Below are positions 2,141 through 55,740 of a DNA stretch of 64,000 nt, piece by piece (the stretch's first letter is position 1; every line of letters begins with the position of its first letter). The position numbers were made by a program, and so were the translations under genes. The notes under the pieces were generated by a model. The model saw only the letters and a program-made list of their open reading frames with translations, had not been told where the DNA came from and searched no databases. This DNA is from Tubulanus polymorphus (taxonomy: Eukaryota; Nemertea; Palaeonemertea; Tubulaniformes; Tubulanidae): NCBI RefSeq assembly GCF_964204645.1, contig NC_134025.1:21854001-21918000 (forward strand), read 5' to 3'.

Positions 2141-5100
2141 CTGCACGCGTTCCGTCATGCCCTTTAATCTCTGAATGAATTCGGTTCCAGATCTGGCTTT
2201 TTCCGATAAAGTTTGAAGTATCTGCGACAACTCGGCCTGTAAAGATTAAAGAACATTCGTACATTACACTAAATCCGATTATCATTATCTATATACGGAG
2301 GTTGGATCGAAAACCGCTACATATGTTATACCGGGTATATCGCGAAGGACCGAAGTCCCGAAGGACCCAGAAAATTTCGAAAAAAAAACATTTATCATTA
2401 CTTAGATCACTCTAGAATATTGACTAATTCAACAGAGGTGGCTGGCCCCTGAACTCACATCATGTGGTTTTGGCATTCAATGCATTTTCTAATCCAATTC
2501 AAAGACGGACATTTTTGATGTCTGTCTGGCTTTCAGCTAATAAGCTTCATTAATAGTTGGTCGATCTTGATAAAACGTGGGTACAATGTTAGTACGGGGG
2601 TCTAGTCGAGTAGTGCAAAATGGACTGAGCACGCCACCTAGTGGCAGAAACATAAAGGGGTCGAAATTTAAAAAGTTGTCTCTACAAAATTTAGCTATTG
2701 ACCCGATACAACATCCAAAATGCAATGGGAACAAACGCATGTGAATTTCAGAGTTCGAGCCCGAGAACCGTTGTCGCCTAAGGCTCGTTCTATCACCCTT
2801 TAAACAAAGATATAGATTCGTTTCTCGTATCATTTTTCATAATCCCGGTGGGAGCGTAACAGCTGAGTTCGCTAACTCGACAAATCGCTCGAACTCCCTG
2901 ATAATCTGTGTCAACTATCATTGAACTAATTATACAGCAGCCTATCTTGTTTGCATCGTTTTTATCACTTAATACTAGATGCTCACTTCGGATTCAACAA
3001 CATATTCTTATTATCGCATGTTACTGATTCTCCAGAGCTTATCTGGTCCGTTTTATGTTGGAATATACATAGGCCTAATTATTTTGTTGTAATTCGCATG
3101 CATGTTGATAAGGGCCCCCCCCCCTCCGTAAATCGATCATTCCATAACAAATTGACTACTTCTGAACACAAAACTGATAGCATTTTTGGCCCTGGCCAAA
3201 TTGGACCCGGAACAACTGTTCACACAGGTGCCAAATGGGCCTGTGCCTGTTTGGCCCGGGTTAAAATCGTCTATCATCTGTTATCGCTGCATCTGAAATG
3301 TCGTTCCATTTTGGTCTGGTTATTCAATTCATCTATCCAAGAATTTGGAATTTTTTTGTGCCGTGGCAGTCTCAGGATGCCATCGCATTTGAATCCCAAC
3401 TGACGGAGGAAGCAGCATCATAGCATAAACCCCAAACCTGACTGGGTGCACAGTTCAACATCATCATTTCCCAATCAAAAGTTTATGTTACATTTTATCA
3501 ATTACATCCATGGTAAAGCAATTAATAAGCCACATGAAACCATGGACTCACTACAGAGGTGAACATTTCTATACAAAATGCATGAATAGTTGAGGCCTGG
3601 TCTAGTGTGCAAAGAGTTTATCACAGCAGCTTCTATTCCAATGCAATTGCAAAGGCTGTATTAGCAGCACGGAGCAAAAATTACTGAGCGTTAGTTGTAA
3701 TGGTATCAAGAAGTCCTAATGAGTTTTAGTGTTCAGAAAGTCATTAGTTCAGTATTCTCGGTATAATCATCAATCCGGCTATTACTAGTGAGAAGTTTCG
3801 AGATATCAAACAGATGTCTTCTGAATGGGCTTTTACAAGTATATAGCCTACTACAATACAGACTTATATATACATTACAATAATGAAATACGAGATGATT
3901 GAGTTGATTTTCAAAATGACCACGGACCTAGTGTGGTTTCAACATGAAATAGAAGAGTATAAGGGCTTTGATAAAAAAATGGCCAACTTCACTAAGCCCA
4001 CTGGAATAATAATAATATTAATTTCGCCATGTACATACGCAGTATAAATGATATAGAGATTATAAACAATTTACACACATACGAGGCTGGATGCTTGGAA
4101 AGCCAGTGGAGGCTGTGTAATTAACTTCACCTCGGTGACTGTTGGTGATTGCAACTTAATCTTAAGCTGACTGGGCTGATTGCTCAACAGTTAACCAGTA
4201 TTTACCCTTGTAAAAATGCGGTTTTAATTGCCACTTTGTCATTGATCCTTATAAGTTAACTTTTTTTTAAAAGTTAACTTTTGAGTTAAGGCTGTGTTTG
4301 GCTCATACAGAAAGCTACTTTCCTTTCTCTCTTCTTATAATTGTGCTTGTTTAAAAAATTGCTAATTATATTTTTTTCATTTTTCCCTTTCCTTTAATCT
4401 CTGTGTATAGCCTTTCATGCTTTCTGTGACATAAATTTGAACTTGAACTTGAGCAACCGCGCCTACCGTCTTAAGTTGTTGAGTTGGCTATAGAGAAACT
4501 AAATGAGCTACAATCCGAGCCGATGATATCCATATCATGCAACTGGCCACATGGATGGGTTCAAAAATAAGTATACCAGTAGAACAATTGATGCGATAAG
4601 ATAGGCGTTAGCACCTTCTCATTGAAGTCATTCTGCTATGAGTCAGCCCTCTGGTCCATTTGAACCGCATAATAGCTGAAAGAAGGGTCGATTCACTGGA
4701 GAAATGATGATGCTCGGCGCACTTCATACCTCACCTTATCGTCTGTGTCTCTATCGGCGTCAATGTTTTACACCTTTATCTCGTTCGACGGCGCCAAAGT
4801 GATTCATTTTACGCGGATATTTATACTAATATTTAATAGATAAGTCGTAGTCGGCGGTGGTTATTTCTCCATCAATGAACTCACTCATCATCTGAACCAT
4901 TTAAACCAGGCCCGGGTTTTATAGATATGGAAGAAAAATTGTCCCTGGGAACATTTTAAAATTTGCTAGTTATGGTGGTTGTCACCCAGATTGAGGATTC
5001 ATTCCTAGAGATAACTTTGATACTCAGTCTATGAAACCGTAAAACCGGACCCTGGCGTTTCACTTCTAGGTTACCTATACAATCGGTCAGCATCAGAAGC

Positions 5101-8100
5101 AAACTGATTGACAATTGATTTGACGACAATGTCTAGTGGCGTTTAGCGACTGCAGTGGTGGCAATAATTTAATGAATGACGCTTTTTTCTTTGAATCAAC
5201 CATGCTTTCGAAGAAATTGAAGTAAATTTGCAGCAGTTAAATATACATGAACCTCTCAAAATCGGCAATTAGCCGTGGCAATCAAAAATTGCTTCCAACA
5301 TGCCGGTCATGCATGTCAATTGCTTTTAGGAGGTACAATTTCAATCTGTTCTTCTTCATTTACTGAAGAATTTGTGTATCTTGTTCTTACACTCTAGATC
5401 CTTAATCCAATTGAAACTAAGATTGTCCTAACCCTTATTCACCGCGACTCATAAACCCCATTACATACCCTCACCCTTCATGTGCCCAGTAAGGTTCATC
5501 TTCCTGATATGCCTTATGGGAACAATTCGTTTCACCACTGGCCTGTTGTCGTACTGCAACTGAGTTTACTGTGCAGGTTAAATCAACTATGAGTGCACCC
5601 AAACCCCACCAAAACCCTTATCCGTGTATGGGTAATATGTGAAGGATACCAGTCAGTTACGGAAGCTAAGCCTTGGTATCATGATCGTGTATCAAGTTTG
5701 AAGTCACCTGTCTGTCAATTGAAGAAATTCTAGTAACGATGTTTTTTTCTGGGAATGAATCATTCTACGCTCCATTGTCGCGTACCTGTATCTGAATAGC
5801 GCGCTTCGATAATTTCAGAAGATTCTTACTCGAATTGAGCGTTGTCTTTGGTTCTTCGGCGCAAAATAGATATTCTTCATTGCGACAGATTTTACCCTCA
5901 TTACAAAATGAATAACGGGCTGATTTCTCTGTCATATGCCGCGTGTCGTTTATACAATAATATAAGGACCCTGTTGCACCAGGTTTCTAACTTGATGTGG
6001 CTGACAATAGGATAACTCATCAAAATTTAGTTCATTTGCAATTAACATTCATCCATATTTTTAGCCACCCACATATAACATAAGGAAAATCGTATCTCTT
6101 GATAAACTCAGATTGATCTTTAAGGTTCATAAATAGCACGGTTTTTATTTCAACATTTGCACAATTTGAGAAATTATGGATAGAATTCCGAATTTTACAG
6201 GAGGTCTGTCATTGTTGTCTCTGAATATTAGCGAACCAGGTAGATCCTTCCTTGCTCGGAGGTCAAAGTTGACGGCAGAGTCAAGGATGCATCCAAGGGG
6301 AGGATGCAGGGGGTGCGTACCCCTTCCCCCAAAATGTGTAAAGTTGCCCCGAAATTTTACAGCAAAACGAATACATTAAACTGATACCTAAGTAGTACTC
6401 AATATTTCCTGAATTGTCTACATTTTTTCCGATTAGCTTTCCTTTGGGTTCCCTTTTAAAAATATGATATGCTCTGTGCACCCCTTCCTGAATCAGACCC
6501 TAGACCCGGAAATCATCATTTCACTGAGGCAGAAGAGTCAGTTTCAGATAACACTGACGAGCAGAGCACATAAGTGTGCGTATGACAATAGAACTAGCCG
6601 ATGATGAAATATAACCGAGAACGCCGAGAAGCCAATTATTACGTAGCCCGAAGCTCCCGATATCGGTGGATCTTGCAGAGACTTTCTTCCGCCACCACCT
6701 CCGTTCTCTCTCTCTCTCTCTCTCTTTCCCTCAGTTCTCTCTCAATCAGTCAGCCATACACACAACACACGCGGCGAGTAAAACAAATCTAATCATACCC
6801 GATGTCAACGAACGCGACGACGACTGAGTCACTTGGTTACGATTCAATTTCAGTTGATCCGGCGAAAATTAAGGGTGTCACACCTTTCCGTCGTCGACGT
6901 TAGAGGGAAGCGGCGTAGAAGATCGATCCGCGAAAGGTGAAAGCCTTACTTTGTATTTCATCACGCCCCAATCAGAAATACGTCATGCTACCCCTGCATT
7001 ATTATCATATACGAATTGGAAAGAAATTGTAGCAATATGCAGATCGGCAAGGAAAAAAATTGAAAGTCAATGAATGAGTAAGAGACCAGCGTGAGTTGCT
7101 TGCTGGATTCAGGCTTGATCAAAGATTGTTTACCTGAACCTGAAACGAAAATTTCTAATTATGTACTTCGATCTCAGGAATGGAGCTCAAATCTACACTA
7201 AATCATCTGGACTTTACTTTTTATGATTCGGTTACCACGGCATTGTGTATACACGGGGTCTGTACTTCAGGTAGATTGATTTCAAATCAGACATCTACAC
7301 TTAAGATCAAGACCATGATCTATTATACCCAGAATTGATGAATCTGCAGGGTGGATCTAGGGTCTGCTTCAGGGAGGGGTGCCCGCCCCAAAATAGGGCA
7401 CATCATATAATTAATCCCTGAAAGAAAGCTCATCAGAAAAAATTAGCTCATATTTGGAAATACAGAGAAGAGCTTATGAATTTCTTTTTTAGGTATCAGT
7501 TTGATATATTTCATTTTCCTATCAAATTTCAGGGCAACCTGATATTTCAGAGGGGGTGCGTACCCCCTGCTACCCCCTTCGATCATCCATTCAATCCGCC
7601 ACTGATCTGGTACTATGTGTTCGAATTCAACAAAGACTAAAAATATAACGTAATTATCGTGAGCTCTCTCATTAATAGCAAACAAAGCCGTTCACAGCGG
7701 TAGGTTATCGAAACGTTTACAGCGCGCTCTACTCTAAGCAGCCAGCGTTGAAGACTTTCTTATTTTGAACAACACACAGGAAAGGTGTTAAATTCAATAG
7801 CGTTCGTAAGCCATAAGCAAATATGTTCGCGCAGCAATCTAACACAAAGGACGAAAAACGACACCGTTCGTTTGTAAATTACTTATGGAATCGGAGAACC
7901 GTTGATTGTGTGTCGACCGTCGCCAGTGAGTCTCCGTTACGTTCGGATCGAGCGTATTTCGGTTTAGTGACCGACGCGGAGGGGCGGAATCGGCGACAAT
8001 AGACCCGCGATCGAACAATAAAAATACGATATATCCGATGCCTTCAACTGTACATTTTCGAGTGGCTCATTATTCGCTGTTTAATAGGCTATTGTCGTCG

Positions 8101-11100
8101 GGTGATGATGTTTATTTTTCTCGCTTGCGCTTTTTTTTCCAAATACGCGAGAACGAAAAATAGAACGGCAAACCCGACAGGCAAATGCAAAGCGAAAATC
8201 AATGGAAAAAAAGCACGGTACGTTCATGCGCGCCCGTAAAACGAACACGTTCCGTAAGTCTAATTTCTCTCCGATTGCGGGCGCAATCGTTTAACCCCCT
8301 CTGTTAACCCGCAATTACGTATTTAGAATATTGTATAGCTAGCGTTAATTTCCTCTACGACCCACCGCAACAGTAGCAAACGCGCAAGTTCGACAAATCA
8401 TGCGCGAAATCGTCACAATTTCACGAGACCGCGTTCTGAAGGTCGGCGGGATGCTGGCGATAACGGACAGTAATTAGAACCGCTCGCAGAGCGCTGCTAC
8501 CAGCGCGCGCCTGTACCGCGGCATTTTCAGCTGCCAATTTTTTTCTGGTACAATTACTTTCCGATTATACGAGAAACAACATCGCAAAAAATAAAGGGAT
8601 CATGCGAAGTCACGTGTAATTCGTACGAGACATCGATGTATTGTTTCGGCGAGGTATCGTGTTGTTTTTCACCGAGTCTCTCATCGAGTCGTCGTTGTTA
8701 TAATATGTGGTTATTATTTCCTCGGCGCTCGTGATCAATAGCCGCGGCGTTTGAAGTGCTCGTCGCACTGTCGCCAGGTTTATCGATTCGCCGCCGAGTC
8801 TCTCATCTCTACGTTGACTGCTATAGCAGTTGTATCACCGCGGTTATTATTAGTTACTACTGCCGCTATTCAGTGCGGTCAACAATCTTAAATGGCTGTT
8901 GTAATAAGGGCAATTGTGCGAATATATTGTAATGATACGGAAGGGCAATAACAAACAAATGTATCGAGTGACGCTAAAATAAGAATCCCGCACCAATGAT
9001 ATAAATAAAAGTCGGAAATGTTGAATTATGATTATCTGATTATCACATCATGTTATTTCATCTTAATCTCATTCACTAGCTCATTACTGTTAGTATTTGT
9101 GATCATCATCATTGTTTTTGTACATAGATTTTCAAGGACAACGATCCTCCACTCGAGTACAGCCTCCTGGCTTACCTCCTTTCCCCTTGTTATATATAAT
9201 CTACTCTATCCTACAAGGGAGCCATGAGGAATATACGACGGATTTTTATTTTGATTCGCTCAACCCACTGAGCGCCACACAGGGCATTATAAACAGGTTC
9301 GATGTTTCTTTTTCCCAATGGGGGAGACACCAGAGAAGAACCTTCAACCAAGAAATTCTGTCGCTACCAGGATTCTAACCAATGAACCCTGGATTGACGA
9401 GACCAGTGAGACTACACCAATGCGCCTACGATGCAACTGTGTCACACAATGTCTTCAACTTTTCCAAATTCGTTCCAGCACATCTTAAACTACTTGAAAA
9501 GAGTTGGCGTTTTTCATGCAATTCTCAACACGAGCATCAATAGGGACATCATTACTTAACTATGATATGGGGGTAGTCTTATTAGCTTATGAGGATGAAT
9601 GTAGGTAAAAATCCCCGGAATAACATTTCCCTAGCTAGTTAATTCATATATATCTACGATCTAATGCAATAGAAATATTGATAGGGTATTGTCGATTGGC
9701 TTAACATTTCAAGTATAATGTCACGAAATGTTATACAACTTTTCATAAGACATAGTTGATAGTTGGTGCCTCATATATATATTTTCATTCCTTGTATAAA
9801 CTCAGGTTCAGGGTCCTATAGAGTTATTCAAAATTCTAACACTTGTTTGACACCCCTTATGTAATATCCAAATACATCAAACTGACTATCAGTATATACA
9901 AACAAGTTTTAATCCACTATCAAAACGAGTTTTGACTGGTATGCCACATATGTATAGGCTTATGTCTTCTAAAATAATCGCACCATTTTTGATTCGATTT
10001 CTAAGCCTAAGCCGACACGAGCAGGCCAGGCCTACTTGAATATTCATCGAAATAGTGGTAATAATTCTTCGAAAGAATATCGTTACATTGTTGATCACTT
10101 CAAAAAAGTTTATAATCCCATAACCCCTCGCACAAGTGTGCACGTATGGTTTCATTATTTAGCCTTGAAAACGCTCTCAAAGCCAGAGCAAAAATGCACA
10201 ATCATCAAAATGAGCAATATCGCAAGATAGACTACGATAATATTCTTATGCGTACAACTTAGTCATAACAGTTATCAAATCATTCCCCCCCCCCCCCCGA
10301 GGAAGTGAAGCCTAGCCATCTGATCCACGAAGCTATAATCTGTAAAATAATTGTAAAACATGAGATCCTCCGTAGCCGAGAGAATCGCAGTGATTATTTG
10401 ACTGATATGAATGGTGGTGACCAATTCTCTCTGACGACGACATTTGTATGGCTTGTTGTGCTTATTGAGAAAAAGACGCTGGTTTAGCTGGTTGAGCGTT
10501 CATCGTTTACTGGGATCGCCTCGTAACAAGCAGACTAACTTATATAAGCTTATCTTGGATCTCTTCAGATTCAGATGGGTGCAAACGCATATCCGTTATA
10601 TCCCGAGTTCTGTTAGAATCTACCTGATTACGTTAGTGTTGCAGTGACTTTGTTATATGAAATAATCACTAATATTGGCCGGAAATGCGTCTAAAAAGGT
10701 TCAATTTTTCGAAAAAAATTTCTTGCAGGAGGTATCCCCTATGGTGCTCGCGGCTAAATAAGAGTTAAATTTGTTCAAATAAGTCTAAATTTGCACCCAC
10801 CAAAAAAGAGGCCGTGTACAGGCGGAAAAAAGTTTTTGGCCAAATGTGTTGAGTTTAACTGAACATTTTAAGTCCTTCCCTGCATCATTTGAATTGTAGA
10901 AATAAATTCGATATTGCTAAACCTTACAATATTTTCTGATCAATTCTCCTTCCTAAGATCGGTGATCATGACTTCGATAGTTGCATCAAATTATCGCCTT
11001 CGCAGTCAAAAAACAACTGAACACACCTCCTCCGCTGCCTGATTAGCAAGGAGATGAATGACTTCGAAGATTCTAAGTGAAAACTGACAGCTGGCTCGTG

Positions 11101-14100
11101 TTTGCGAACACCTTACACATGATAGAATAGACCGATAGAATAATGATGACGAACACCTTACACATGATAGAATAGACCGATAGAATAATGATGATGATGA
11201 TGCCTCGGCGCCAGCGAGCTTAGTTTCACTTCGAAGATGATCTCAGCTAATCAGTCTCATAAAACCTCATTCGACTCGAGCTTATATAGTCAATTCATGG
11301 ATATCCCTATTGTACTTTTTATTAGTATTAGATGAATATATTTAGAGCAGGTACCAGACCTTATCAGTATTGACAAAACACTACAATAAAGGAACTAAAG
11401 GTGAAATGCAAACATCGGAAATCCGAGTGATTGACCGTTTTCGACAAAGATAGAAAAATCTTCAACAACAACAACGTATTTAAATGAAGACAGATGTGGC
11501 GGAAGTCGGGAACAACGCCCCGGCATTGACACACGAGGCGCTGATCGAGCCCCGATGATTGAATCAATCACGTAGAACTTGTTAAAATCATTTATCTGTG
11601 AAAATTACGCAGACAGACTGTCGCCAATCTCAGTTTGCTTAGCGCTAGCTAGCTAAAAGCGATATGGCGATGATATCGAGCCCCGTGTACGCACGGAGTG
11701 CTGGCGATTTACAGTGGCGCTTGCGCGTGCACATATTCCCAGCTACGATTGAATATGCAATCTGATTAAATTTCTACATCGTAGAGATCAACTGAGAATT
11801 GATCTCGAAAAATTGACTTCGCGGAACTAAGATTAAAAAGATGTTCATACCTATCTATTTTTTTCGTTTCACGCATGACTTGCTGAGAGCGAATCATGAC
11901 ATTATTAGCAGGTACAAGGCATCTTTTTACCAATTGATGGACCACCACCAAGGGGCAGATCCGAATCGCTTTAGAAGGGCGATGCAGAAAAAAGGGCAAC
12001 TGTACTTCATAGAAAGTATTGCGCGGACCAACGAAGGGCCTCCCCCGGAAAATCTAAAAGATCTAGACTTATTCTAGCAACTTATTAGATCATCTGATTT
12101 CTATAGACCATCAATTGACTGGATGGAACATTGTGATATATGAGAAAAAAGTTTCTGAAGAATGATTTAGACACCGCAAAGGCAGTCCTCTCATAGCTCA
12201 GGACTTGAAAAGTGCTTATACCTCCATTAGACCATTTTTTAACAAAAAAAAAATATACACTAGTCGGTAAAGTCGTATTTAGACCATGAAAGTGATATCA
12301 TTTATAGTATCGTTACTTTGTCAGAACTCTACACATTCCTTCCATCAATATAGACGAAAAATATGTTCGCCAGAAGATTTCTCCCACTCAAAAATAAAAA
12401 TATGAAGTTCGTTTCCCATGACTGTTAACAGATCAGCTTTCTTATATAACGTTTCAACACCTTACGTAAGATTCACATGAGACACTTCAATCAAAGCGTA
12501 AAATTACTAGATAACAAAACATATTCCATGCAAATCTAAACAGGTTTGCATGTTGTTAGAAAATACATAGTTGAGTGATATTGAGCGAAAAGAAAAAGAA
12601 AAGCGAAAAGAAAATTTACCATTTTACCATTTTACCCGGAGAACAACAACACGAACATAGGACCGACCAATTAACTCTCGCGGCCGCCAACCTATGATAA
12701 GTGCTATCAGTAACAAATTGAATTTTTTTCTGTAATATGAAAGTAAATTAATGAATTAAAAGAAAGTCAAATTAATCAGTTATCAACAGTAAGACCCTCA
12801 CTGACACATTTCATATTTCTATACGCAGCAAACAAATCAAATCAGTATTTCTCATTGTCAAATAGTAACAATACTGAAAATCAGGAACAGTTGGCAACTC
12901 TCTCTCTTAATCGGTCATCGTCAGACCTCTATTTGCTTCCAGCCTTTTTATAAATAATCTATCATCATTTCTTTTTCTCTTGAAAATGTTTTATTGTCAT
13001 CAATGCTGTGTTACATTCTCTATTGTGATATTCCAATCTCGCAATGTAATTACTAAATAGTCAATAAAGATTAATTGAATCGATCAATTGAATCGAATCT
13101 CCGCCTAGAAATGGAGTAAGAGGAATTCCTGCCTCATACGGCGACTTCTTCCCGGGTTATTGTTCGAAGGTATTGAATCGGAAAGGGCTTATTCTTAAGC
13201 CATAAACCCATTAATTAGGCACTCTAATCTACCGACAATTGAAATTCCTCAGAGAAAGGTGCCGGACTTACAGTCCGCTACAAAGACTGCTCGTCGGTAA
13301 ATTTAATCTCGAGCACATTCGAAGACGTTCGCTGGAGACAGTCAGTCTGGAAAGCGATGGCGTAGACAAAAGTCATCGCGCCGCGGACAAATCTTCGAAA
13401 ACGTGCTCGACGAAATGAGCGCCTCGTCGTCGACACCTGTCCACCACAAAACAGAATAATGAAGAAAAATCTACTTTGTCGCCGAACGAACGCCGTACGT
13501 GTCGCTGATGATGTTTCATTGTGTGGACTAATGCCGGCTTTATGATGGAGAGAAAAAAAATCAGCCTCTCGCCAGTTCAAGGCACCGAGGTTAGATTTTC
13601 TGACCGGCGACAAAAATGTGTTTTGGTTTTTCAAGAACGGGTTAGATCCCTTTCAGAAAGGGTTCTTTGGCCACAGGACAGCATGGTTCTCCGTATAACT
13701 CTGAAGAGCGGTTACTTTTGCCGATGCTAAATCCCAAGCTTTCGATTTCGGTTTGGAGTGTTCGCCAAAAACCCTTGGAATTCATTCAACACTGAATTTT
13801 GGTGTAATCTTCCAATAATATCTCCCCCATTATTGCTTTGCACAATAGTTTGATAGTTAATCATTAACTATCAAACTATTGTGCAAAGCAATAGTCGCTG
13901 TAACCAATGATAGAATATTGGTATCAAATCATGTATAGGGGTAGCAGACTATTGACCAGGGGTGGACTCATTTCGGAGTGGATGTTAAAATGATCGGGGT
14001 GGTTTAAAACACCTAGTTGAGAACGCTGAACAAATAAAATGAGGATCAGGTGTTCTATTGGAAAAGTTTTTTTGACAAACACATTCACGTAACGAAACAT

Positions 14101-17100
14101 TCTCCCCAATCTCCACAATACACATAATTACGCATCCATGTAACGTGTTTACTACGCCATATACGCGAAAATGGGGTTGAATAAAAACTACATTTTCATG
14201 ACACCGTCGAGGAGGTTGTAGTAGGCCTATTGGCAAAATAAAACGTCGAAATGACGATTCAATTGCTGCAAGGCGTAGGAGTCTCACGCGTATAAGAGAT
14301 CGTAGAAAAATCTATGAACTAAAATAATGTATCACTATCTCGCATTTCCATTGTAACGAAAACCTTTTCATCAAAATCGATACCTAGTAAGTATTTACGC
14401 AAACAAAACGCGCCCGAGGATTTTTTGCACAACACTTACACACGACGAAAGGAGCGATAAAAGATTACATTACTCCAACAATACGTTTCGAATAGACTAA
14501 TACTTCTCTCGAGGCCAGCCCGTGGGGGTCATTGATTCTCCAGAAAATGTTTCATACCGGTTGTTTAGCTCCGGTTATGTTTTGTGATTTATTCGTAGGT
14601 GTCAACGCTCCGATTTTACGTGTAGGTAAACTTTTCAGTATAGTTCATCGGGTATAAACCAGTCCAAAAACAGCGGATGCCAGATTCGAAAGGAAAACAA
14701 GGGAAAAAGCCCTTACAAAAACATAGGCTATATCGTTTTCACTGTATGTGGGTGACGCAGGGGCAGATCCAGACCATACATACCGCGCACCATCTACAAT
14801 AAATACCCATTCGTAGAAACAATAGAAAGTTGTAACTGTAATTTGGCCTTAAGACTGCACTGAATAGGCCTAGAGCCCCAAATTTTTAATTACACTCTCG
14901 GGACAGCGATGCCCCAGTGCCCCTATTCTCTCCTCAGATGTCTGGACTTCGAAATCCCTGTATTAACCCAATTAGCACTCAGGAATTTCACTATAGTATG
15001 TAGTGCCTATTACTCCTCGGAAATCCATATTTATCACAATATAGAATAAACTAATTTCCAGTTCATTTTCATGTATTTGCGCCTATAAGTTTATGGTATT
15101 TTGTAGTAAACAGTCAAGGCTTTCATATGATTTGAGATTTGATGAGGTGGACCACCAAAATCATTACCTTCACCTCACACCCCCCCTGAAATCCATCCAG
15201 ACATACTTGCATATAAGTGAGTGCTCGGATCTGTCATGTTCATAGTCCAAATACTCAAGGATTTCAAAAAGGAAGATGTTGTTTTCTGCACGAAGTTTTG
15301 ACATCTTGGATGTCTAGGTTATCCTAAGCTAATGGGTTCGAATCCAACTGTAACCATTTCTGTGCAGCACACAAAAAGTGTCAGGGTGGCTCGAGGGCTA
15401 ATAGGTTGACGTAGTAAACTCAGACATCACCGATAAGTAGACTTGGAGTATGTGCTGATTGTGCATTTCAGTGAACTCAATCAATGTTCAAACAAAGAAA
15501 ACATGGGCCGCACAGATGAAACGTCACCTACAGATACAAAGGCAGTTTCCACGAGTAATTTCAAAATGTAACCTTACAAAATAGAAAAGGCCATCGTTTT
15601 GTCGAAGAGGGGGGGATAGTGCTGAAGAGCCAGGTGGCCTCCTCAAAAACAGTCAACAAAAACTTAGCCAGACCACTTAAAAATCCAAACCATATTTCCA
15701 ACATACGTATATGTAGAAAAGTAATTATTGTGAAGATAATTGCTTGTAGACATAACAAGCAACTTCGATGACAAGTCGACATTCAGCACTGGTGATGTTG
15801 AATTGTTTAACGTGAGAATTGAGTGTTTAATCGCCAGACCAAACTAATCTGATATCTCTAATAATCATATCGCAGTTTTCACCACAAATTAGAGTAAAAT
15901 ATCAAATGATCATCATTATTACTATCACTATCATTATTTTTTTTCAATTTGTATCTACTGTTTTATCACATATGTCGTTATTCTAAACGTTGTTTCGATT
16001 AACTGATTTGCAGCGGATTTTGTTATTGTTCTTTTCCAGGTCCATTCCCCTGTTTCGACTCAGCCTTTAGGCTCGGGGATGTCCTTTCAAATATGTAGGA
16101 GCAGTGTGTAGTCAAAGCAACGCTCATAAAAAAATGTTCTACCTATATCGATGAATTCATTATATTGTTATCAAAATGGTAAATTTTATTGAAAATCGTC
16201 CGAGAATTTATTCAGATTTTTTAGAGTAATTTGATGATAATTTCGGGAGTAGTCAAGTCCGTATTACTCTGATTAGGTACATTATTATGTAGGGCATCCG
16301 TACTCTATGATGAGAGATACAGTACAGGTATCGATCGGAACTACTATTCAATAAGATACGTTCACACATCCACATCGACTACAAATTCCGCTAGGTTCAC
16401 TCTCCACCGCGGTGGCTTGCGCGAGGAGACTAATGAAATATTTACAAATACCTCGGTCGTTATCGGCTCCGACAGTTAAATGTATCGAAATGATTAATCG
16501 TAATAAATTGCTCGAAAAGAGAATCGTAAATAACTCGAGGGCAGAAGATACACCACCACACTTTCAAGAATGGATGATGATCGCAGGTGGTCCAATCATC
16601 AGATCACCGTGAGTAACAATCAAATGTATTTATCATATTCGATTGTAGTGTCATGTGATTGTAAATACCAAGCTTTCAATCGTGCAAAGAAATGCTTCAC
16701 CTCCCCTGCTATGACATAACTGTAACCTATTCGCACAGTGTAACCACCCGGGCTCTGTTTTGATCTCTGGGTTGATGGAAACCGTGATTATTTCGCATCT
16801 TTGCAATTCAATTTCAACCTTTGCAATTCAATTTCAACGATGATGAATTTGAAAAGAACTAGATATAAAGAAGCTAATATAGACGACTCGCCGGTGCTAA
16901 TTCGATCATTAATTCGAAACCCCAGGGACTATCTATAACTTACTTAGATCGTAGCGATGAACTCATGGATCTTACGCAGGTCCACAAGTTGACGGTCAGA
17001 TTTAAGCGTCATTTTAATGTAAATTATTGTGAGACAATCGAAAGAATTAGTGAATTAGTAATCAATTCAATCGTTTGATAGAAATTAAACTTCAACAAAA

Positions 17101-18871
17101 CAACCGTCGAGCTCTAATAGGTCTTGAATCCATGATCGAACGACCATCAGTCGTTGTCTATTTTAATGTTTTTTCGCTCAGGTCATTCACAGCGGACCAG
17201 AAGATATTCCACCAGATGGGTTACATAGCCTCAGTATTTATAAGGATGGATGTATCATACGAAATTTTGACTTACTGGAAACAATACCTGCCCAGTGGGC
17301 CTTACTATAACTGCAAATATGTTTCATAAGGAACATGACAACAGTATCATGATAATGATGCATATCATTTGTCATTTTATCAGCTATCAGTTTAAGCTTC
17401 GAGTAATCATTTGTCAAATGATTACTCCAAGGCTAAAGTACCATGTAAATATGACCGCCGATCCCAACTAGTTATAACTATACTTCGATTTCCTATTATC
17501 AAACTCCTGGCAAGTGTGGTTGGTTGGTTTGTAAGGAACAGCGAATCAAAACAAATCTACCAGTTACAAATTGTTGTTTAGGCCTAAATAATTATTAGAT
17601 AAATCAAAATAACAGGGTCAATCCCGTTTTCAAGATCAAGTACTGGTATACCATGATTATGACTTTTGATCACGACTGATCTTTCACCTTGTAGGTCCTA
17701 TGTTGTTTTTTGACTTATGCTAATTGGTTAAATTTCTAAAAGCTTAACATTAAGGGGTGATTTTCCCTCTTATCTATTCGATTGATTGATCTAGTTGTAC
17801 TTGACTTTAAAGGTCTATTCGGGGCATTCACCCCAAAACCCAACACACACCTGCCACTGCATCGTAAGTCCTTCCTGGACCTAGTCAATCCATCCTGCTG
17901 AACTTACTCAATCCCTAGCAACCCTTGAGGGCTATATACCTTTCCCTAACCCTAATCAATACATTCATGGATATATGTGTTGATAAACCCAAGCTGTTGC
18001 AGTACAATAGGCCTATATCCAGGTGGTTCATTGTAACACTTGTGTATATTTCCATAACCTAAACAACAAATCTGATTCTTACCTTCTGCGCTTTACACAT
18101 AGCCCCCAGGGCTTGAACTTCGTGGTCCAAATGTTGGCCGTCTTGCACGCAAATGTAGCACATTGCGCACCGACAAGACAAACAGTACATGCTCAATAGT
18201 TCGTCCTGGTGTTCGAAACATCGTGTCATTTGATTTTTACTCTTCGTTCGAATGAGCTGTTTGCCCGTTGACGCCGGCACGAGGTTGTGCCTCGCTAACG
18301 GTCCTCGCGCCGGGTGACAGCTATCCCGACAGCGGTCGCAATAAAAAACCTCGCATTGTTCGCACATCGTCGTCGCCTCCGACGCGTCTTTCTCGCACAG
18401 CTGACATTTCAGCAGCAAGTTCTTATTTTCCACGTACTTGTCGACGATCGCTTCGAGCACACGGTTTTTCGGCAGCGTCGCCGCGCCATTTTCGTCGAAG
18501 TAGACATTTTTCCGACACACCGGGCACGCGAATCCGTGAGAACTATCACCGGCGCTCAGCGACTGGAAATAAATATTACCGATACTGGGCGTGCCGACGT
18601 AAGACCCGGGTCGACTGTTGACGACAACTCCGCTGTCGGTTTCCGAAACGACCGAAAGTTTGTCATCGATATCGGGATAATCGTATTCACCGCCACCACC
18701 GCCGCTCGAATTTTCGTCCGAAGACGATGAACTGTTATTGTTGTTGTTTAGCTGCTGAGCGGGTACCTGACGCTGCACCGCGCATTGTAAACACAAAGAA
18801 TGAGAGCACGGCAACAGTATAGGAGTAGTGTAAAGCCGGCTACACACCGGGCAGCGAAGTTCGTCCTCCAT
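2141..18871 (-). CDS. TRIM9: TRIM9/TRIM67-like E3 ubiquitin ligase, 5' part (2 exons seen)
   Basis: Coding exon 1 is 18083-18871 (263 codons, from the ATG at 18871); exon 2 is 2141-2236 (32 codons). Both joins are phase 0 with good GT-AG sites. Exon 1 encodes an N-terminal RING with metal ligands C7, C10, C22, H24, C27, C30, C116 and C119, then B-box 1 (about residues 156-197) and B-box 2 (about 218-252). The RING is interrupted by a low-complexity insert of poly-Asn, poly-Ser and poly-Gly (about 37-105), a hallmark of the TRIM9 subfamily. Exon 2 encodes the start of the coiled coil (LSQILQTLSEKA...), which aligns with vertebrate TRIM9. The COS, FN3 and SPRY parts must lie left of the window. 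TRIM9 proteins are neuronal class I TRIM ligases acting in netrin-guided axon branching and exocytosis. TRIM9 and TRIM67 arose by vertebrate duplication, so this gene should be the common co-orthologue. Confidence 0.93.
2630..2644 (+). promoter_or_regulatory. CTCF-like motif
   Basis: The sequence CACGCCACCTAGTGG agrees at 13 of 15 positions with the reverse form of the animal CTCF core (RGCGCCMYCTRSTGG). It lies about 400 bp from TRIM9 exon 2. CTCF binds such sites as an insulator and loop anchor in most bilaterians. The match is by eye against a remembered consensus. Confidence 0.35.
4906..5055. repeat. Degenerate inverted-repeat element (GGCCCGG family, copy 1)
   Basis: The left end reads CCAGGCCCGGGTTTTATAGA; the right end holds the complementary TCTATGAAACC and AAAACCGG..CCCTGG. 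The same ends flank the better preserved copies at 22092-22203 and 56796-56908. The internal sequence differs from those copies, so this is an old or unrelated-core member. Confidence 0.5.
6280..6510 (+). repeat. 230-bp dispersed repeat, copy 1
   Basis: This copy shares several blocks with 57548-57785 (same orientation) and 7345-7612 (opposite orientation): the GGGGTGCGTACCCC or equivalent start, a block ending in TTAAACTGATACCT, a CGATTAGCTTTC-like block, and the end AATCAGACCCTAGA(T/C)CC. Any frame across it is a by-product of the repeat. The class is not recognised; it is probably a non-autonomous DNA element. Confidence 0.6.
6703..6725 (+). repeat. CT dinucleotide microsatellite
   Basis: A run of about eleven CT units is followed by further CT-rich sequence to about 6745. 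Confidence 0.9.
7345..7612 (-). repeat. 230-bp dispersed repeat, copy 2
   Basis: This is the inverted copy of the family at 6280-6510. It begins with GGATCTAGGGTCTG, the complement of the family's right end, and ends in the GGGGGTGCGTACCCCC block. Confidence 0.6.
7690..8900. other. CpG-rich intronic block without an open frame
   Basis: Base composition changes here: CG dinucleotides are frequent (clusters such as GCCGCGGCG near 8741) while neighbouring intron sequence is AT-rich. No long reading frame or splice-bounded exon was found on either strand. It could be an unmethylated regulatory island, an internal promoter or an enhancer of the TRIM9-like gene. That is inference from composition only. 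Confidence 0.4.
9261..9443 (-). mobile_element. tRNA-derived SINE, diverged copy
   Basis: This aligns along its length with 49503-49674: shared CAACCCACT start on the plus strand, a TTCTTTTT(C/A)CCAA block, GAGACCAG-like block, CCAGGATTC(T/G)AACC and GAACCCTGGATTGA. Read on the minus strand, the tRNA-like head is at the high-coordinate end; its B box is mutated (GGTTAGAATCC) and its A box is hardly recognisable, so this copy is old. Confidence 0.6.
11105..11194. repeat. Two exact 45-bp tandem copies
   Basis: The unit begins CGAACACCTTACACATGATA and is repeated at once at 11150, with no difference that I can see. It is followed by a short GAT run. The identity points to a recent duplication. 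Confidence 0.9.
11841..12077 (+). CDS. Protein-like fragment, unrecognised
   Basis: The frame from about 11874 to the stop at 12077 reads like real protein: mixed charged and hydrophobic residues, few rare runs, and an ending EGPPPENLKDLDLF. The first dozen codons (from the ATG at 11841) are pyrimidine-tract-like and probably not coding. It may be the last exon of a gene nested in the TRIM9-like intron, or an old retrocopy. The acceptor could be the AG near 11887-11890. I could find no matching upstream exon and do not recognise the family. Confidence 0.3.
   Translation: MFIPIYFFRFTHDLLRANHDIISRYKASFYQLMDHHQGADPNRFRRAMQKKGQLYFIESIARTNEGPPPENLKDLDLF
13831..13893. repeat. Perfect palindrome, 30-bp arms
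   Basis: The left arm begins TATTGCTTTGCACAATAG and runs 13831-13860. After a 3-base spacer (TCA), the exact complement occupies 13864-13893. There is no mismatch. Confidence 0.95.
16799..16838. repeat. 20-bp direct tandem repeat, two copies
   Basis: CTTTGCAATTCAATTTCAAC occurs twice in immediate succession. Confidence 0.9.
17401..17427. repeat. Perfect palindrome, 13-bp arms
   Basis: GAGTAATCATTTG and its complement are separated by one base. Confidence 0.9.
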
Positions 18872-24884: not shown

Positions 24885-27800
24885 ATGTTTAAAAGAAAAT
24901 TAGAGGCGCTCAATTATCACACACCCGATAACGTCAACGTTAAAGGTAAGCCAAGCAAAGTCACCTGCACTGCCTCCGGGTCCGACGACGTCACTGTCTG
25001 AGACGGGAGTCGGTAGACCGGCACCGTCCTTCGCCTCCGGCCTTCTGGCTTCTGTTAATTAAACCACCACGGCACCAGCCAGTACCAATATCACCTGACT
25101 GGTCTAAGTTATTGGCGCTCAAACTGTTACCACTCTTCGATGTCAATAATAAGAAATGGCAAATATAACCTTAATTCAAAAATCGAACAGAAGAAATTAT
25201 TTCATTGGTAGGGTAAAATTTAGCTTGTCATAAGTATGGGTACGAGTTGGCGCCACAGGGGCTTGTATTTGAAATTTGGGGGTGAACTGTAGCTTAGATC
25301 ATCCAGTATCCCTGGTACTATATTCTTTTTATATATATAGTACCAGGGATACTGGACGATCTATGCCACAGTTCACCCCCCAAACTTCAAATACGAGCCC
25401 CTGTGGTTGGCACCAAATGCAGTATGATTTTACCAGGTAAGAACTACTGTCAGCTCGGCTGAACCTTACTCCGGTATGTATCTCATCTACTCTTCACCGG
25501 AAGATATGTAAGTTGGCATTTATCATTTCAGATGAAAAACAGTTCAAGAGTCTGATTGTATGGTTAGAAGATCAAAAAGTCCGTTTTTACAAAATCGAAG
25601 ATCGGGAGTTTTTGAGGAACACCGAAAGTGATGACTGGAATAAAGCATTTCTAACGGTAAACTTGAGTCATCTAATTCTCTTAAACGTGACCACGAACAC
25701 CAGATAGTTTTGGTAATCCTTTTCATTCCGTGATACTCGTTTGTTGATGACAGTGACCTAGTCCTTGTTGTCATACGCTTTTATAGTCGGACAAGGGCTT
25801 AAAGCCAACCATGGTTTCAGAACCATCATCAGCTACTTTATTTTCACCTTATTTGACATGTTCCATGTAATTACCCGTGATGACGGTGATTATTCAAATA
25901 CCATTGCTTTAGCACTTCTTCGCCCATGACTGCATCTCGGTGACTGCTGATTGACGTAAAGGATTTTATCTCGGGTAATAGCGGAATGCGGCCTAGCTTT
26001 ATCCATCTTGAATCGTTGTTATTATTTGCGTTGCAGTACATTCAAGACTTGTCGTGTCCGTACAACCCGGCTGATCGTTCAGCTGTATTAGACTGGCTGT
26101 TAGGTTACGCGGTTAAATTAGAATATGGAGATTCTGGTGAGTTTACAGGTGCAGTGACCTGTGCAGCCCCTAAGGCTCTCACTGTTACCTTCATTTAACT
26201 ATACTTCCTTTTTCTTTGCTGTCAACATTCACGTAAATGTAAGTTAAATGAAAAATAAATTATTATCATTATCAAAACAAGAAACGGGCATCGCTGCTAT
26301 TTGGAACTAATGCGTCAAACTTCAATTGTCGACAATAATTTCAATTCATAAGAATTGCTGAATAATTTTTTATTTTTCAGTGGACAAATACAAAAGTATG
26401 TCAGCGGATAAGTTCACCGAGGAACAAAAGAAAGAAGCCATTTCGAAATCAACAAATCCTCTTGATGCTTTAGATTGTAAGTATCCAAGGCCTACTCTTA
26501 CTGGGCATGCTGGCAGTATATTCAATTCTACATAGAAATATGGCCTTCCTCCATCGCAGTGCAGGAGAATCAACCCGTTTAACAGTTTTTGAACATGCCT
26601 CACAGAGTTGACCTCACTTTTTTAGTTGAAGGTCCTGATTTTAAAGCTGGTGTGGCATCCTTGGCTCAGCTTTTAAAAGTACCCCCGCACACCGATCATA
26701 AAGAAGTACTTAAGGTAATTGAGTATATATGTTATTCAGAACCGAGTTTGACAGTTGTGAATTAAGTTTGACTGTGACTGGTTCCTTGTTGATTAGATGC
26801 AGTTCTTTGGGCGAGTATTGTTCAGTTGCCTCATGCTTTTGTTTTAGGCGATATGTTTATTGATAAAAGAAAAATTCAATAAAGATGAAATGGATAAAGC
26901 TGGAAAATCATATGATGGCAAGGTAAGGGTGGTGGAATATGCATTTCATTACATTTCAATGAGACAACTAGGCTGTAGTTGCGATTGTGCCCAAGTCAAA
27001 CTGGCCCAGATCAGACCTGAGAAAAATTTGGCCCATGCCTCCCGTAATTTAGAGAATGCACAAATCACTCACTTGTTACTAACATGCCACAACACATAAG
27101 AATACAATTGAACCTCGTTAATTTGATTCTGTTTCAGAAGAAATCCGCTTATTACGATGTTTTCCAGCCTGTCCCAGCTAAGATATTTATATCAACCAAG
27201 ATTTGGACAATATGAAACCTGTTTACTATGACAATTTCACTTTAGCCCACGAGATTCGTATTTACGAGGTTCCACTGTAACATCATTTTACGGTCACTGT
27301 GTTGCCCTCTAAAGGATATAGGTGTAAACTGTTCACAAGTTTATTACAGTGGAACCTCGTTATAATGAACAAACGGATACAACAAATATAGAATTTCGTC
27401 CCAAGCACCGTATTATGATTTCATACTGGATATAACAAACATAATATCTGGTCCAGTGAAGTCGCTGTAACGAGGTTCCTCTGTAGTAACTGCTATGTGG
27501 AAAATGCTTCGTGTCTTGTGGTATATAAAAGCTATACCGGTAACTGTAGAGCAACTTTTTGTCTTTTTTCAGATCGAATGTATACCATTGGATAAAACCG
27601 ATTTAGGATTCGATGCAGGAGGTAGGTTGAGCTGTTAATCAACATACAATGATGAACTAATGTTTGCCTTCTAGTTATTCTACGTGATATACACACTGAA
27701 ATTTGGCCCATATTGTTGATCATCAAGTAAAAAACTATGATTTTTAGCCCACCTGGGACTAGTTCACCAATTATTATTCCGCTAGGACACTATAGACCGA

Positions 27801-30326: not shown

Positions 30327-30460
30327 ATAAGGTGCTGCCCCTACGGCCATCGTTAACGGATTTTTTATACACTATAAGATCGACTCTGGCAATCGACGTA
30401 CTGCGTTTAGCGGTTGATTGCCAGAGTCCGCTAACCACGAGCATTGCGGCAGCACCTTAT
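30327..30460. repeat. Imperfect long inverted repeat
   Basis: ATAAGGTGCTGCC (30327) pairs with GGCAGCACCTTAT (30448). An inner pair, GACTCTGGCAATC (30382) with GATTGCCAGAGTC (30415), lies within. The open frames across it result from the symmetry. Confidence 0.7.
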
Positions 30461-30865
30461 GGAGGCAGTTCGCTGGTTGCCAACCGACTGTGATGCGACG
30501 TACTGTGATGCGACGTGCAGTGACTGATCGCGTCTAAGAAAATAGAACATGTCCCCCACTCGTTGCAGTTTTAAAAGGAACAGCAACTGCGTCGCTAGCA
30601 GTCCCTCTGCATCGTAAGCTCGGCCTTATCACCACTCTCTCAAAAAGATCTCCCTGGCATCACATTTAGAATTGCGATTGTCTTGGGATGGCTCCAGGCT
30701 ACAAAAATCGATGCCTGCCTATAATAGCTTTTAATGATATGATTAAGTCTTACGTGTACGTACACTCAATTGTGTACATTTCATTCTGATATGTAAATTT
30801 CGATAATCGGTGGAAATTTGTTGTGCTCTCATTTCGTTATACGTATGTAATTCGATTATTGATTT

Positions 30866-51742
<20,877 letters not shown>

Positions 51743-52553
51743 TTTCTGATCGTAGGATACACCGAAAAGTGATATCCGTTCGTTTCGTCCCAACGCTAAA
51801 CGAGTAACTCGGTCAAACTCCGCGCTCTCTACTCGCAAACTACGCGGGAAAATATTCCTTTTGTCGAAATAGAAAAGATTCTTAGCTTACAATATATACC
51901 TAGCGGTATAAACATGAACCACTTATATGTATCACGGATTTACTACAAGATTCTGGAAACTATAGAATCTTTTCTATTTTTGAAAGAGCATGCCGTTACC
52001 GTCGTGTACGTATGCCTACCAATGGTAAGTAAGCAACAGTCCAACAGAAATAAGACTTATTTACTGATCAACTTTAATATGTGTCAAACAAAATGTGATT
52101 GGCCTATCGCAGCACGTAGGGCTTACTTAAACTGATAAGTCTATACATATATACAGATTTGATCGCTTTTAATAATACGATATGAGCGCTATTAACTTTG
52201 CGGATAACAGAAACAAAGAACGCTCTAGAAATAATAAATACCAGATCAGCGAGAATGATAATCGGGGACTGTTCTCGTCAATGGAATGATTATTCTGTGA
52301 TTGGTTTGTTTGTTTTCTAAAAAGAATTGGTACTCAAAGTCTCGAATTGATACTCAAATTCCACTGAACCCTTGACTCTCAGGAATCTCGACAATAGCCG
52401 CAAATATGCATTCTATAAGTGAATGTTTAAATGCTACGGACACTGTTTATTCTATTAGTATGTACTGTATTATTCATCTATGAATTGGTCGGTTTTCAAG
52501 GTTACAGAATCCAGGGTAACCGGCAGAACAACCGTTTCTACGGTCGAGAAAAA
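51743..52553. promoter_or_regulatory. Head-to-head spacer, nidogen and zinc-finger gene
   Basis: About 0.8 kb separates the nidogen ATG (minus strand) from the most likely ATG of the zinc-finger gene (plus strand), so both promoters or 5' UTRs lie here. An in-frame ATG at 51838 would extend nidogen by 32 residues but would bury the signal peptide, so 51742 was chosen. No strong core promoter motif is evident. Confidence 0.5.
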
Positions 52554-54284
52554 ATGTCACAACGCCAGGAGCAAAGTTTCTTGCAGAGAAATGCCGACCG
52601 CACTACTTGTAGGGTATGTGGTCGTATGAATAGTATCATATTCATTTCGACATGCTGTCAGAAGCGTGTTTGTCCAACGTGTACGGTTGGGACGGCAGAT
52701 GGGGGTTATTTGTGCCATAGATGCCGCGAATCTGTTTCTCTGACCACTGAAGACATCGTTAACAGAAGAATCGGCGTGAATTGGAGAGACATTTGGCGGT
52801 ACAATCTACCCGATCACAGAGGATTTCTAGAAGCCGGTAAATCTTCAATCCGTCTTAAAAATCTAACTTCTTTAAATCTAACCTTTCATGTTGACTGATA
52901 GTTTATTCAAAATCTCTTTTTCAGATCGGCCACAATCGGGAAGCGAAGACGCATTTCACGAACTAGTAGGCAATATAATATCTAGACCCCAGACGAGAGC
53001 GCAGTCTAGGGGCCTGTCAATGCAAATACTTAGACCCTGCCGTTCAGCCCAAGGCGAACTTCATCCAAAAGCACATCCTTCGGTTATTCGTACAGTTTCG
53101 GAACATCGCCCGAGGCCGCCTTCTCCGCACCCGAATTCTCTAGAAACAGATAACTATCGGTCGGCAACGCCGGCTAATATCGCATCAGGAGCCGGCCAAC
53201 GCACCAGACACCAACGCCGGTCGAAATCGATTCGTAGCCCATTACATCGAGCAAATACCGTCATGTCTGGCGCTAAAGACAAGCACCAGCGCCATCAACG
53301 TCCCGTCGATAATAACAGCTCCAGAACGGAAGTATTATCCACGAATGTCCTGTCAACTTCGGGCTATGGGGCGAGTGCTAGTCATGCGTCGGTGTCCGAA
53401 ACAAGAGCATCCCAGTTAGTAAAATGTAATCGATTAGACAATATGGGCCTAGTTGTCTATTCGTCAGCACAAGGCGACGAAGACGAGAACAGTCGCCCGT
53501 CAACTGAATATCTAATCGAAGAGGATATGGTCGACAACAGGCCATTGTCATCATCGGTATCTGACAGAGAATCGAAATCGTCTGGTAGCGATATAGAACG
53601 CAATACGTCTCCAAATAAAAGTATATCTTTTCTCTCTCCTCGCAAGACACTTACCCGGTATCAGAGGCGTCATTCTAAAAGGGGACCAGAATTATTACAA
53701 GCGGGACTATATGCCATACTTCGCGCCGTATCTGCCGATGCCGGAGGCAAACCAGCTTTTCTGAATTCCCGAAATTGCTTGAACGTCCTAAATAGTCTTT
53801 AATTTTCTAAAAATCCAAGCTTGAGGGGGGGCATTTTTGGAACTTTAAAGGCAAAATATTTATGAAATTTCCGGAATGTGAAAAAACAGAATTTGGTACT
53901 TAAAAAGTGCGGAACTTGGATTTAAAAAGGGGTCGTCTGCACCCCTCGAACCTCCTCTGGCGACGCCCATGGTTGGTTATCATATCAAAAGACACCGATA
54001 ATGCGATATGTTTCAATAGTGTGCACACATGTTGCGAGCAGAGTGAATCTTTCAGTTTCCATTTCATTCCGACAGTGACTCGACCATCAAACCGCCAAGG
54101 CTGGGTATCGCAAATCCACCATAGTATAACATCTCAAGCAGAGTCGGACACAGATCTGGACGAATTTGGCGATGATGATGACGATGAACCGATAGAGGGG
54201 CCCGGATTCGGCAGTGATAATGACGACCTGGAGGTCATCGATGAAGTTATGACCAATGACGAGGACTTTTGGGACACGAAGTAA
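52554..54284 (+). CDS. Zinc-finger protein of unknown family (3 exons)
   Basis: Exons 52554-52836, 52925-53657 and 54056-54284 join in frame (phases 1 and 2) to give 414 residues plus stop. An eight-cysteine finger near the N-terminus (C19, C22, C34, C35, C40, C43, C54, C57; CRVC..CC..CPTC..CHRC) resembles the treble-clef fingers of FYVE and Rab-effector proteins such as rabphilin and RIM, but the family is not recognised. The middle (about 95-340) is Ser/Arg/His-rich and probably disordered. The C-terminus is very acidic (DEFGDDDDDEPIEG) and ends EDFWDTK. The upstream in-frame ATG at 52431 would add 41 residues with a hydrophobic start; its AT-rich codons make that less likely, though an unseen upstream exon is possible. 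The exon 2 donor was chosen for phase agreement with the acceptor at 54055. Confidence 0.7.
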
Positions 54285-54290
54285 AATATC

Positions 54291-54296
54291 AATAAA
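54291..54296 (+). terminator. Poly(A) signal of the zinc-finger gene
   Basis: AATAAA lies 7 bp after the stop codon, with a second at about 54361. The short spacing to the first makes the second equally plausible. Confidence 0.55.
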
Positions 54297-54299
54297 AAA

Positions 54300-55661: not shown

Positions 55662-55740
55662 ATGGTTGGTTCGAGAAGGGGTTTAGTCGCACCGCAAAAT
55701 ACATTTTTGGAAAATATCATCCGACGATCGAACGGTCAAC
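55662..55740 (+). CDS. KCNH1/KCNH5: EAG-type voltage-gated K+ channel, first coding exon
   Basis: Twenty-six codons plus one base: MVGS, then [20 protein letters not shown] and GQ, ending before GTAAGTTTTT (phase 1). [15 protein letters not shown] is the near-invariant PAS-cap start of EAG channels (human KCNH1 and KCNH5, fly eag). ERG channels begin with a different variant, so the EAG subgroup is favoured. The exon ends where human and fly genes split this region. The channel is a six-segment plasma-membrane K+ channel with an N-terminal PAS and a C-terminal cyclic-nucleotide-binding homology domain, mainly neuronal. The PAS exon was not found in the remaining 8.2 kb, so it lies beyond the right edge. 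One gene here would be co-orthologous to KCNH1 and KCNH5. Confidence 0.88.

What the first reader, a model, noticed from the sequence alone, without database searches (positions are those of the whole stretch)
2141..55740. TRIM9 - RTRAF - nidogen - EAG block matches human 14q22-q23 and, by paralogy, 1q
Seen: TRIM9-like (minus), RTRAF (plus), nidogen (minus) and an EAG-type channel exon (plus) within 54 kb. Known: human TRIM9 (minus), RTRAF (plus) and NID2 (minus) lie in this order and these orientations on 14q22, with KCNH5 further along on 14q23; TRIM67, NID1 and KCNH1 are all on 1q. Inference: this invertebrate keeps the unduplicated ancestor of a vertebrate 2R paralogon, with order and strand preserved since the bilaterian ancestor. 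MRPL4 and the zinc-finger gene are either local insertions or were lost from the vertebrate copies.
Basis: partly seen in the sequence, partly recalled or inferred. Interest (0 to 1): 0.88.

Follow-up and report, generated by a model that had tools for sequence, protein, structure and literature searches.

The report
Ancient animal gene neighbourhood, partly preserved
In this invertebrate genome a cluster of genes still sits together much as its relatives do on vertebrate chromosomes, apparently a surviving piece of the ancestral animal gene map from before vertebrates duplicated their genomes.

Summary
The window holds TRIM9/67 (minus), MRPL4 (minus), RTRAF (plus), nidogen (minus) and the start of an EAG channel gene (plus). 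Genome searches found no second RTRAF, TRIM9 or nidogen, and the other three KCNH loci look ERG- or ELK-like. TRIM9-RTRAF-nidogen follow the order of a cattle chromosome 10 gene list; mammalian strands are recalled. EAG matches as linkage only.

Fetched flanks (264 kb in all) hold MCFD2, an STPG4-like gene, TTC7, a ubiquitin-RPS27A-like gene, RIOX, WDCP and VPS54, mostly human 2p genes (recalled). Eleven of twelve named genes fall on human 14q, 2p or 1q; MRPL4 does not. All five answered marker families (PROX, PCNX, VASH, IRF2BP, PPM1A/B) lie on the same contig, 12% of the assembly; four were chosen beforehand, one after seeing the 2p genes.

Best reading: one unduplicated bilaterian linkage group, ancestral to parts of 14q, 2p and 1q, with a locally kept trio. 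It is a good example of a known kind. Other invertebrates could not be compared, no gene trees were built, and the species is unknown.

The parts
2141..18871 (-). TRIM9/TRIM67 gene, 5' part (presumed start codon at 18871, coiled-coil exon at 2141-2242; FN3 and SPRY exons lie 21.5-24.5 kb left of the window)
   Evidence: Pfam RING/B-box; PDB TRIM9 140 bits, TRIM67 133 bits for the SPRY exon; positions; one SPRY-exon match in the genome
19643..22610 (-). MRPL4 (mitochondrial ribosomal protein L4), intervening gene, the one named gene that is not from the 14q/2p/1q group
   Evidence: PF00573 E=1.6e-20; exon positions
24885..28661 (+). RTRAF (C14orf166), eight exon segments read; no other locus found
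   Evidence: PF10036 E=3e-81; PDB RTRAF E=7e-72; exon positions; genome search finds only this locus
30908..51742 (-). Nidogen, tail-to-tail with RTRAF; last exon identified at 30908, about 2.2 kb from the RTRAF stop (true 3' end not established)
   Evidence: G2F and LY repeats, NIDOGEN-1, positions; the only other G2F locus, on C7, sits behind thrombospondin-type repeats and so looks like hemicentin
36683..40392 (-). Array of 12 EGF modules inside nidogen, nine of them of one similar type (recent exon duplication)
52431..54281 (+). Unidentified open frames with a cysteine-rich, zinc-finger-like stretch; no accepted family match
55662..55733 (+). First coding exon of an EAG (KCNH1/KCNH5-type) potassium channel; gene continues to at least window position 89087, outside the window
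   Evidence: KCNH1 E=6.8e-9; channel exons 656/644 bits to KCNH5/KCNH1 against 402 to KCNH2; positions

Best explanation
The locus is an inherited, unduplicated piece of one bilaterian ancestral linkage group whose vertebrate descendants, after two rounds of genome duplication, are parts of human 14q, 2p and 1q. In this animal the genes stay on one contig, each found once. Within the 264 kb read, the mammalian 14q22 neighbours TRIM9-RTRAF-nidogen keep their order (shown here; mammalian side from a cattle gene list, mammalian strand from recall), and the 2p21 neighbours TTC7 and an STPG4-like gene stay tail-to-tail (shown here; human orientation recalled). Vertebrate copies then lost different members: the 14q copy kept TRIM9, RTRAF, NID2, KCNH5; the 2p copy kept MCFD2, TTC7A, STPG4, RPS27A, VPS54, WDCP; the 1q copy kept TRIM67, NID1, KCNH1 (inferred, positions partly recalled). 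The most likely cause of the local conservation is slow rearrangement inside a stable chromosome, not a demonstrated regulatory constraint (inferred).
For: Gene identities: window genes; flanks. Copy number: RTRAF only here; TRIM9 SPRY exon only here; G2F here and on C7, the latter hemicentin-like; three other KCNH loci, of which C12 is ERG type, C10 is 71% identical to C12 and 53% to EAG, and the pieces at C1 30.15 Mb score higher with C10 and C12 than with EAG. Linkage: four marker families chosen beforehand from recalled ohnologue pairs, PROX, PCNX, VASH, IRF2BP, and one chosen after the 2p genes were seen, PPM1A/B: 5 of 5 answered searches on C1, which is 12.0% of the assembly; four of four by chance 2e-4. 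Control: Wnt genes lie on C1, C3, C4, C5, C7 and C9. Mammals: cattle chromosome 10 list TRIM9, unnamed, TMX1, FRMD6, GNG2, RTRAF, NID2 (PMC10048491); cattle chromosome 11 rows with MCFD2, TTC7A, STPG4, VPS54, RPS27A, PPM1B and WDCP (PMC12075139). Chance of the trio.
Against: MRPL4 does not fit (human 19p, recalled). Mammals have other genes between TRIM9 and RTRAF. MCFD2 lies on the far side of the STPG4-like gene here but beside TTC7A in human (recalled). KCNH5 is far from NID2 in human (recalled). The mammalian lists do not say that they are in map order, and the long cattle chromosome 11 row gives a span (0.48 Mb) too short for its genes, so it shows the chromosome at most. Pecanex has a second match on C1. 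Two of nine Wnt loci (my count) are also on C1. No other invertebrate was compared.
Confidence: 0.87

Rival explanations
1. Regulatory constraint: the block, or the convergent pairs RTRAF/nidogen and TTC7/STPG4-like, is held together by shared enhancers, chromatin domains or transcription-termination effects.
For: Order of the trio exceeds chance in the model; published work links bilaterian microsyntenies to co-expression or chromatin topology (PMC8851819, passages).
Against: No regulatory data here; MRPL4 interrupts the trio; the mammalian block has other interveners; in Drosophila, as I recall, these genes are unlinked.
Confidence: 0.2
2. Linkage is ancestral but the close order of the trio is a coincidence of reshuffling inside the same linkage group.
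For: Gene order inside linkage groups is largely scrambled between amphioxus and vertebrates (PMC7269912, passages).
Against: Expected number of such trios by shuffling is 0.001-0.018 per genome, and a second pair (TTC7/STPG4-like) is kept next door.
Confidence: 0.07
3. Misidentified families: the genes are only domain relatives and the match to 14q is an artefact.
For: Some exons alone are short or give generic domain hits; the LY part of nidogen matches LRP proteins better than nidogen.
Against: For TRIM9 and EAG the named family leads the next by more than 100 bits, and RTRAF has a family of its own.
Confidence: 0.02

Closest known systems
Bilaterian/chordate ancestral linkage groups and vertebrate 2R paralogons (Simakov et al. 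2020, PMC7269912, passages)
   Same: Genes that share one invertebrate chromosome are spread over several vertebrate segments; here 14q, 2p and 1q.
   Different: That work finds order inside the groups largely scrambled; this locus keeps a trio and a pair in order.
Deeply conserved microsyntenic blocks of bilaterians (PMC8851819, PMC10719294, passages)
   Same: Small sets of neighbours, with a few interveners, kept between distant animals; 45 such blocks are reported between amphioxus and chicken.
   Different: Six paper searches by gene name found no description of this block in their listings, but supplementary block lists could not be read, so it may be listed there.

Membership tests
Unduplicated segment of the 14q/2p/1q paralogon | Genes are single-copy relatives of genes with vertebrate ohnologues | tested here: met
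   RTRAF and the TRIM9 SPRY exon found once; nidogen once, the C7 G2F locus being hemicentin-like; one EAG-type among four KCNH loci. TTC7 copy number was asked but not answered
Unduplicated segment of the 14q/2p/1q paralogon | Other members of the paralogon are on the same chromosome | tested here: met
   5 of 5 answered marker families on C1, the fifth chosen after the flanks were read; the SIPA1L marker PF11881 did not complete
Unduplicated segment of the 14q/2p/1q paralogon | Gene trees place each gene before the vertebrate duplications | tested here: inconclusive
   Near-equal scores to both paralogues (TRIM9 140, TRIM67 133; KCNH5 656, KCNH1 644) fit, but no tree was built
Deeply conserved microsyntenic block | At least three orthologues within a short span in both genomes, few interveners | tested here: met
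   TRIM9, RTRAF, nidogen with MRPL4 as the one named intervener here; a cattle list with an unnamed gene, TMX1, FRMD6 and GNG2 between
Deeply conserved microsyntenic block | Same order and orientation | tested here: inconclusive
   Order met for the trio against the cattle list, which does not state that it is in map order; mammalian strands are recalled, not read; EAG does not keep place at this scale
Deeply conserved microsyntenic block | Present in several phyla | not testable with these tools
   Whole-genome searches cover this genome and prokaryotes only

The most novel reading that the evidence does not exclude
The 264 kb region preserves, in near-ancestral order, the pre-duplication neighbourhood MCFD2 - STPG4/TTC7 - RPS27A - TRIM9 - RTRAF/nidogen - EAG - RIOX - WDCP - VPS54, and its two tail-to-tail pairs are held by a selective constraint older than the protostome-deuterostome split.
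Probability: 0.12. Interest if true: 0.65.

Novelty: new member of a known kind. Interest (0 to 1): 0.42.

Why it matters
It joins, in one short stretch, genes that vertebrates now split between 14q, 2p and 1q, so it gives a direct guess at local gene order before the vertebrate duplications and names a trio and a pair that can be checked in every chromosome-scale invertebrate assembly. It does not change the accepted picture.

Tried and rejected
A COX1 search to identify the organism found no match. The five contig ends read (both ends of C1, starts of C2-C4) showed no telomere array. A paper search on the assembly size listed two unrelated papers; the chaetognath Paraspadella gotoi (257 Mb, 9 scaffolds, passages) and the bryozoan Flustra (956 and 880 Mb, abstract) do not match 267.8 Mb. 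Organism and phylum remain unknown. tRNA and Rfam scans of the window were empty.

An early idea that only 14q and 1q are involved was dropped once the flanks proved rich in 2p genes. The idea that the GPCR-like frame left of TRIM9 is the PTGDR of mammalian 14q22 was dropped: only a weak 7tm_1 match, below its cut-off. In one search I read locus L049 (KCNH piece at C1 30.15 Mb) on the wrong strand and so could not assign it; one search corrected that.

Rows set aside before counts: unnamed frames in the 264 kb (cysteine-rich gene, GPCR-like frame, HECT-like frame and other short frames) are not in the 'eleven of twelve'. Wnt control: 39 matches, which I group by eye into nine loci, two of them on C1.
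Full report
WHAT IS THERE. The window is contig C1, 21,854,001-21,918,000, of a 267.8 Mb, 77-contig genome; C1 is 32.06 Mb. Reading both strands and testing the pieces gives, left to right: TRIM9/67 minus, MRPL4 minus, RTRAF plus, nidogen minus, an unidentified cysteine-rich frame plus, and the first exon of an EAG channel plus. TRIM9 and EAG run off the window, so I fetched 100 kb on each side: the TRIM9 FN3-like and SPRY exons lie 21.5-24.5 kb to the left, and EAG runs to at least window position 89,087.

FAMILY TESTS. TRIM9: the SPRY exon scores 140 bits to TRIM9, 133 to TRIM67 and at most 26 to the other listed chains. RTRAF: PF10036 E=3e-81 and a PDB match over its whole length, E=7e-72. 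Nidogen: G2F E=2.8e-49 and LY repeats E=1.9e-33; the G2 part matches NIDOGEN-1 at 94 bits, while the LY part scores higher with LRP proteins, which carry many such repeats. EAG: 656 and 644 bits to KCNH5 and KCNH1, 402 to KCNH2. Another KCNH locus (L048, C12) prefers KCNH2, 339 against 210 bits, so the separation works both ways. The near-equal scores to both vertebrate paralogues fit genes that predate their splits; no tree was built.

COPY NUMBER. All three RTRAF matches are in the window. The TRIM9 SPRY exon has one match. G2F matches are in nidogen and at one place on C7; there two thrombospondin-type stretches precede it, the arrangement I recall for hemicentin. EAG has three KCNH relatives: C12 is ERG type; C10 is 71% identical to C12 and 53% to EAG; the pieces at C1 30.15 Mb score 65 and 63 bits with C10 against 59 and 47 with EAG and look ELK-like to me. 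These are six-frame searches that score only the best candidates.

NEIGHBOURS. A codon-usage scan and reading of open frames in the flanks gave, left of TRIM9: MCFD2 plus (PDB MCFD2 E=2.5e-15), a SHIPPO-repeat gene plus (PF07004 E=3.7e-10; the STPG4 label rests on recalled resemblance), TTC7 minus (PF19440 E=1.8e-41; TTC7B 368 bits), and a ubiquitin frame plus (E=1e-15) followed by a basic stretch that I read as RPS27A; no ribosomal-protein family matched it and its first exon was not found, so it could be incomplete. Right of EAG: a JmjC_2 gene minus (E=5e-28), probably RIOX1 though RIOX2 is not excluded, WDCP minus (PF15390 E=5e-15) and VPS54 plus (PF07928 E=3e-12). TTC7 and the SHIPPO gene are tail-to-tail, 1.5 kb apart; RTRAF and the last identified nidogen exon face each other 2.2 kb apart.

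WHERE THESE GENES ARE IN VERTEBRATES. A cattle chromosome 10 list reads TRIM9, an unnamed gene, TMX1, FRMD6, GNG2, RTRAF, NID2, an unnamed gene, PTGDR (PMC10048491, table passage), and a human 14q22.1 amplicon of 613 kb holds NID2, C14orf166, GNG2 and PTGDR (PMC2997777, table passage). Neither source says that its list is in map order. Rows of cattle chromosome 11 hold MCFD2, TTC7A, STPG4, CALM2, VPS54, RPS27A and PPM1B, and, in another row, WDCP (PMC12075139, passages); the long row states a 0.48 Mb span that cannot hold its genes, so it shows the chromosome at most. Recalled, from no call: all human strands; KCNH5 on 14q23; TTC7B on 14q32; RIOX1 on 14q24; TRIM67, NID1 and KCNH1 on 1q; MRPL4 on 19p; cattle 11 as human 2p; the order MCFD2-TTC7A-STPG4-CALM2 on 2p21. 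On that basis 11 of 12 named genes in the 264 kb (MCFD2, STPG4-like, TTC7, RPS27A-like, TRIM9, MRPL4, RTRAF, NID, EAG, RIOX, WDCP, VPS54) fall on human 14q, 2p or 1q; three of these labels (STPG4, RPS27A, RIOX1) are less certain.

LINKAGE ON THE CONTIG. Families recalled as 14q/1q duplicates were searched in the whole genome: PROX at C1 1.96 Mb, Pecanex at 22.43 Mb with a second match at 12.05 Mb, Vasohibin at 23.77 Mb, IRF2BP at 0.31 Mb (its control search also rang in E. coli, which I cannot explain). After the 2p genes were seen, PP2C_C of PPM1A/B was added: 26.02 Mb, one piece above and one below its cut-off. That is 5 of 5 answered on C1. At 12.0% of the assembly, four of four by chance is 2e-4. 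The Wnt control spreads over six contigs; by my count two of nine loci are on C1.

IS THE LOCAL ORDER MORE THAN CHANCE. I simulated genome pairs in which linkage groups are kept but order and strand inside them are random (15,000 and 20,000 genes, 7,000 shared, 8 or 20 groups; all assumed). A trio within four genes here and seven there, same order and strands, appears 0.001 (8 groups) to 0.018 (20 groups) times per genome; ignoring order and strand it appears 0.07 to 0.41 times. A first run of 120 pairs gave no strand-and-order trio. The strand part of the comparison uses recalled mammalian strands. Published work says order inside linkage groups is largely scrambled between amphioxus and vertebrates (PMC7269912, passages), yet reports 45 blocks with up to five interveners between amphioxus and chicken (PMC10719294, passages) and 256 new blocks at the bilaterian ancestor against 45, 48 or 56 in shuffled genomes (PMC8851819, passages). 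So the trio is probably a real example of a known phenomenon.

VERDICT. A better statement is: one unduplicated bilaterian linkage group that became parts of 14q, 2p and 1q, with a retained trio (14q22) and a retained tail-to-tail pair (2p21) close together. The EAG part is linkage only. On checking, the copy-number statements for nidogen and the KCNH loci were tested further and the confidence was lowered from 0.88 to 0.87 because the cattle lists prove less than first written.

Noticed in passing
window 36683-40392 (-): Nidogen carries an array of 12 EGF modules, nine of one similar type; 20 of 66 module pairs exceed 85% DNA identity, the highest 95%. With 11 unsplit modules found by another pattern (one shared) nidogen here has at least 22 EGF modules, far more than I recall for vertebrate nidogens.
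   Followed up: partly
window 30328-30400: A roughly 72-base stretch between RTRAF and nidogen has 83 scored relatives at 78-86% identity in the genome, many in spaced arrays on C1, C2, C3, C4, C8 and C11, one on C31; no tRNA or Rfam match in the window.
   Followed up: no
window 40560-40753: Long TA dinucleotide run in a nidogen intron.
   Followed up: no
window coordinates -68049 to -59241 and 64688 to 66355 (loci L012, L013, L019): Repetitive open frames on both strands in both flanks (RFGAPAKTNF-like and RNELRFCGAQKR-like peptides), probably minisatellite DNA rather than genes.
   Followed up: no
window coordinates -63516 to -61621 (-), locus L012: A 632-residue open frame with a HECT domain match (PF00632 E=8e-9), possibly from a mobile element.
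   Followed up: partly
window coordinates -39269 to -38094 (+), locus L015: A single GPCR-like open frame inside the TTC7 gene on the other strand; weak 7tm_1 match E=6e-4, below its cut-off.
   Followed up: partly
G000:C1:13270326-13296041: A compact cluster of about three Wnt genes, perhaps the ancient Wnt9-1-6-10 cluster (identity of members not tested).
   Followed up: no
G000:C7:14548763-14549311 (L044): A G2F domain behind thrombospondin-type repeats, probably hemicentin.
   Followed up: partly
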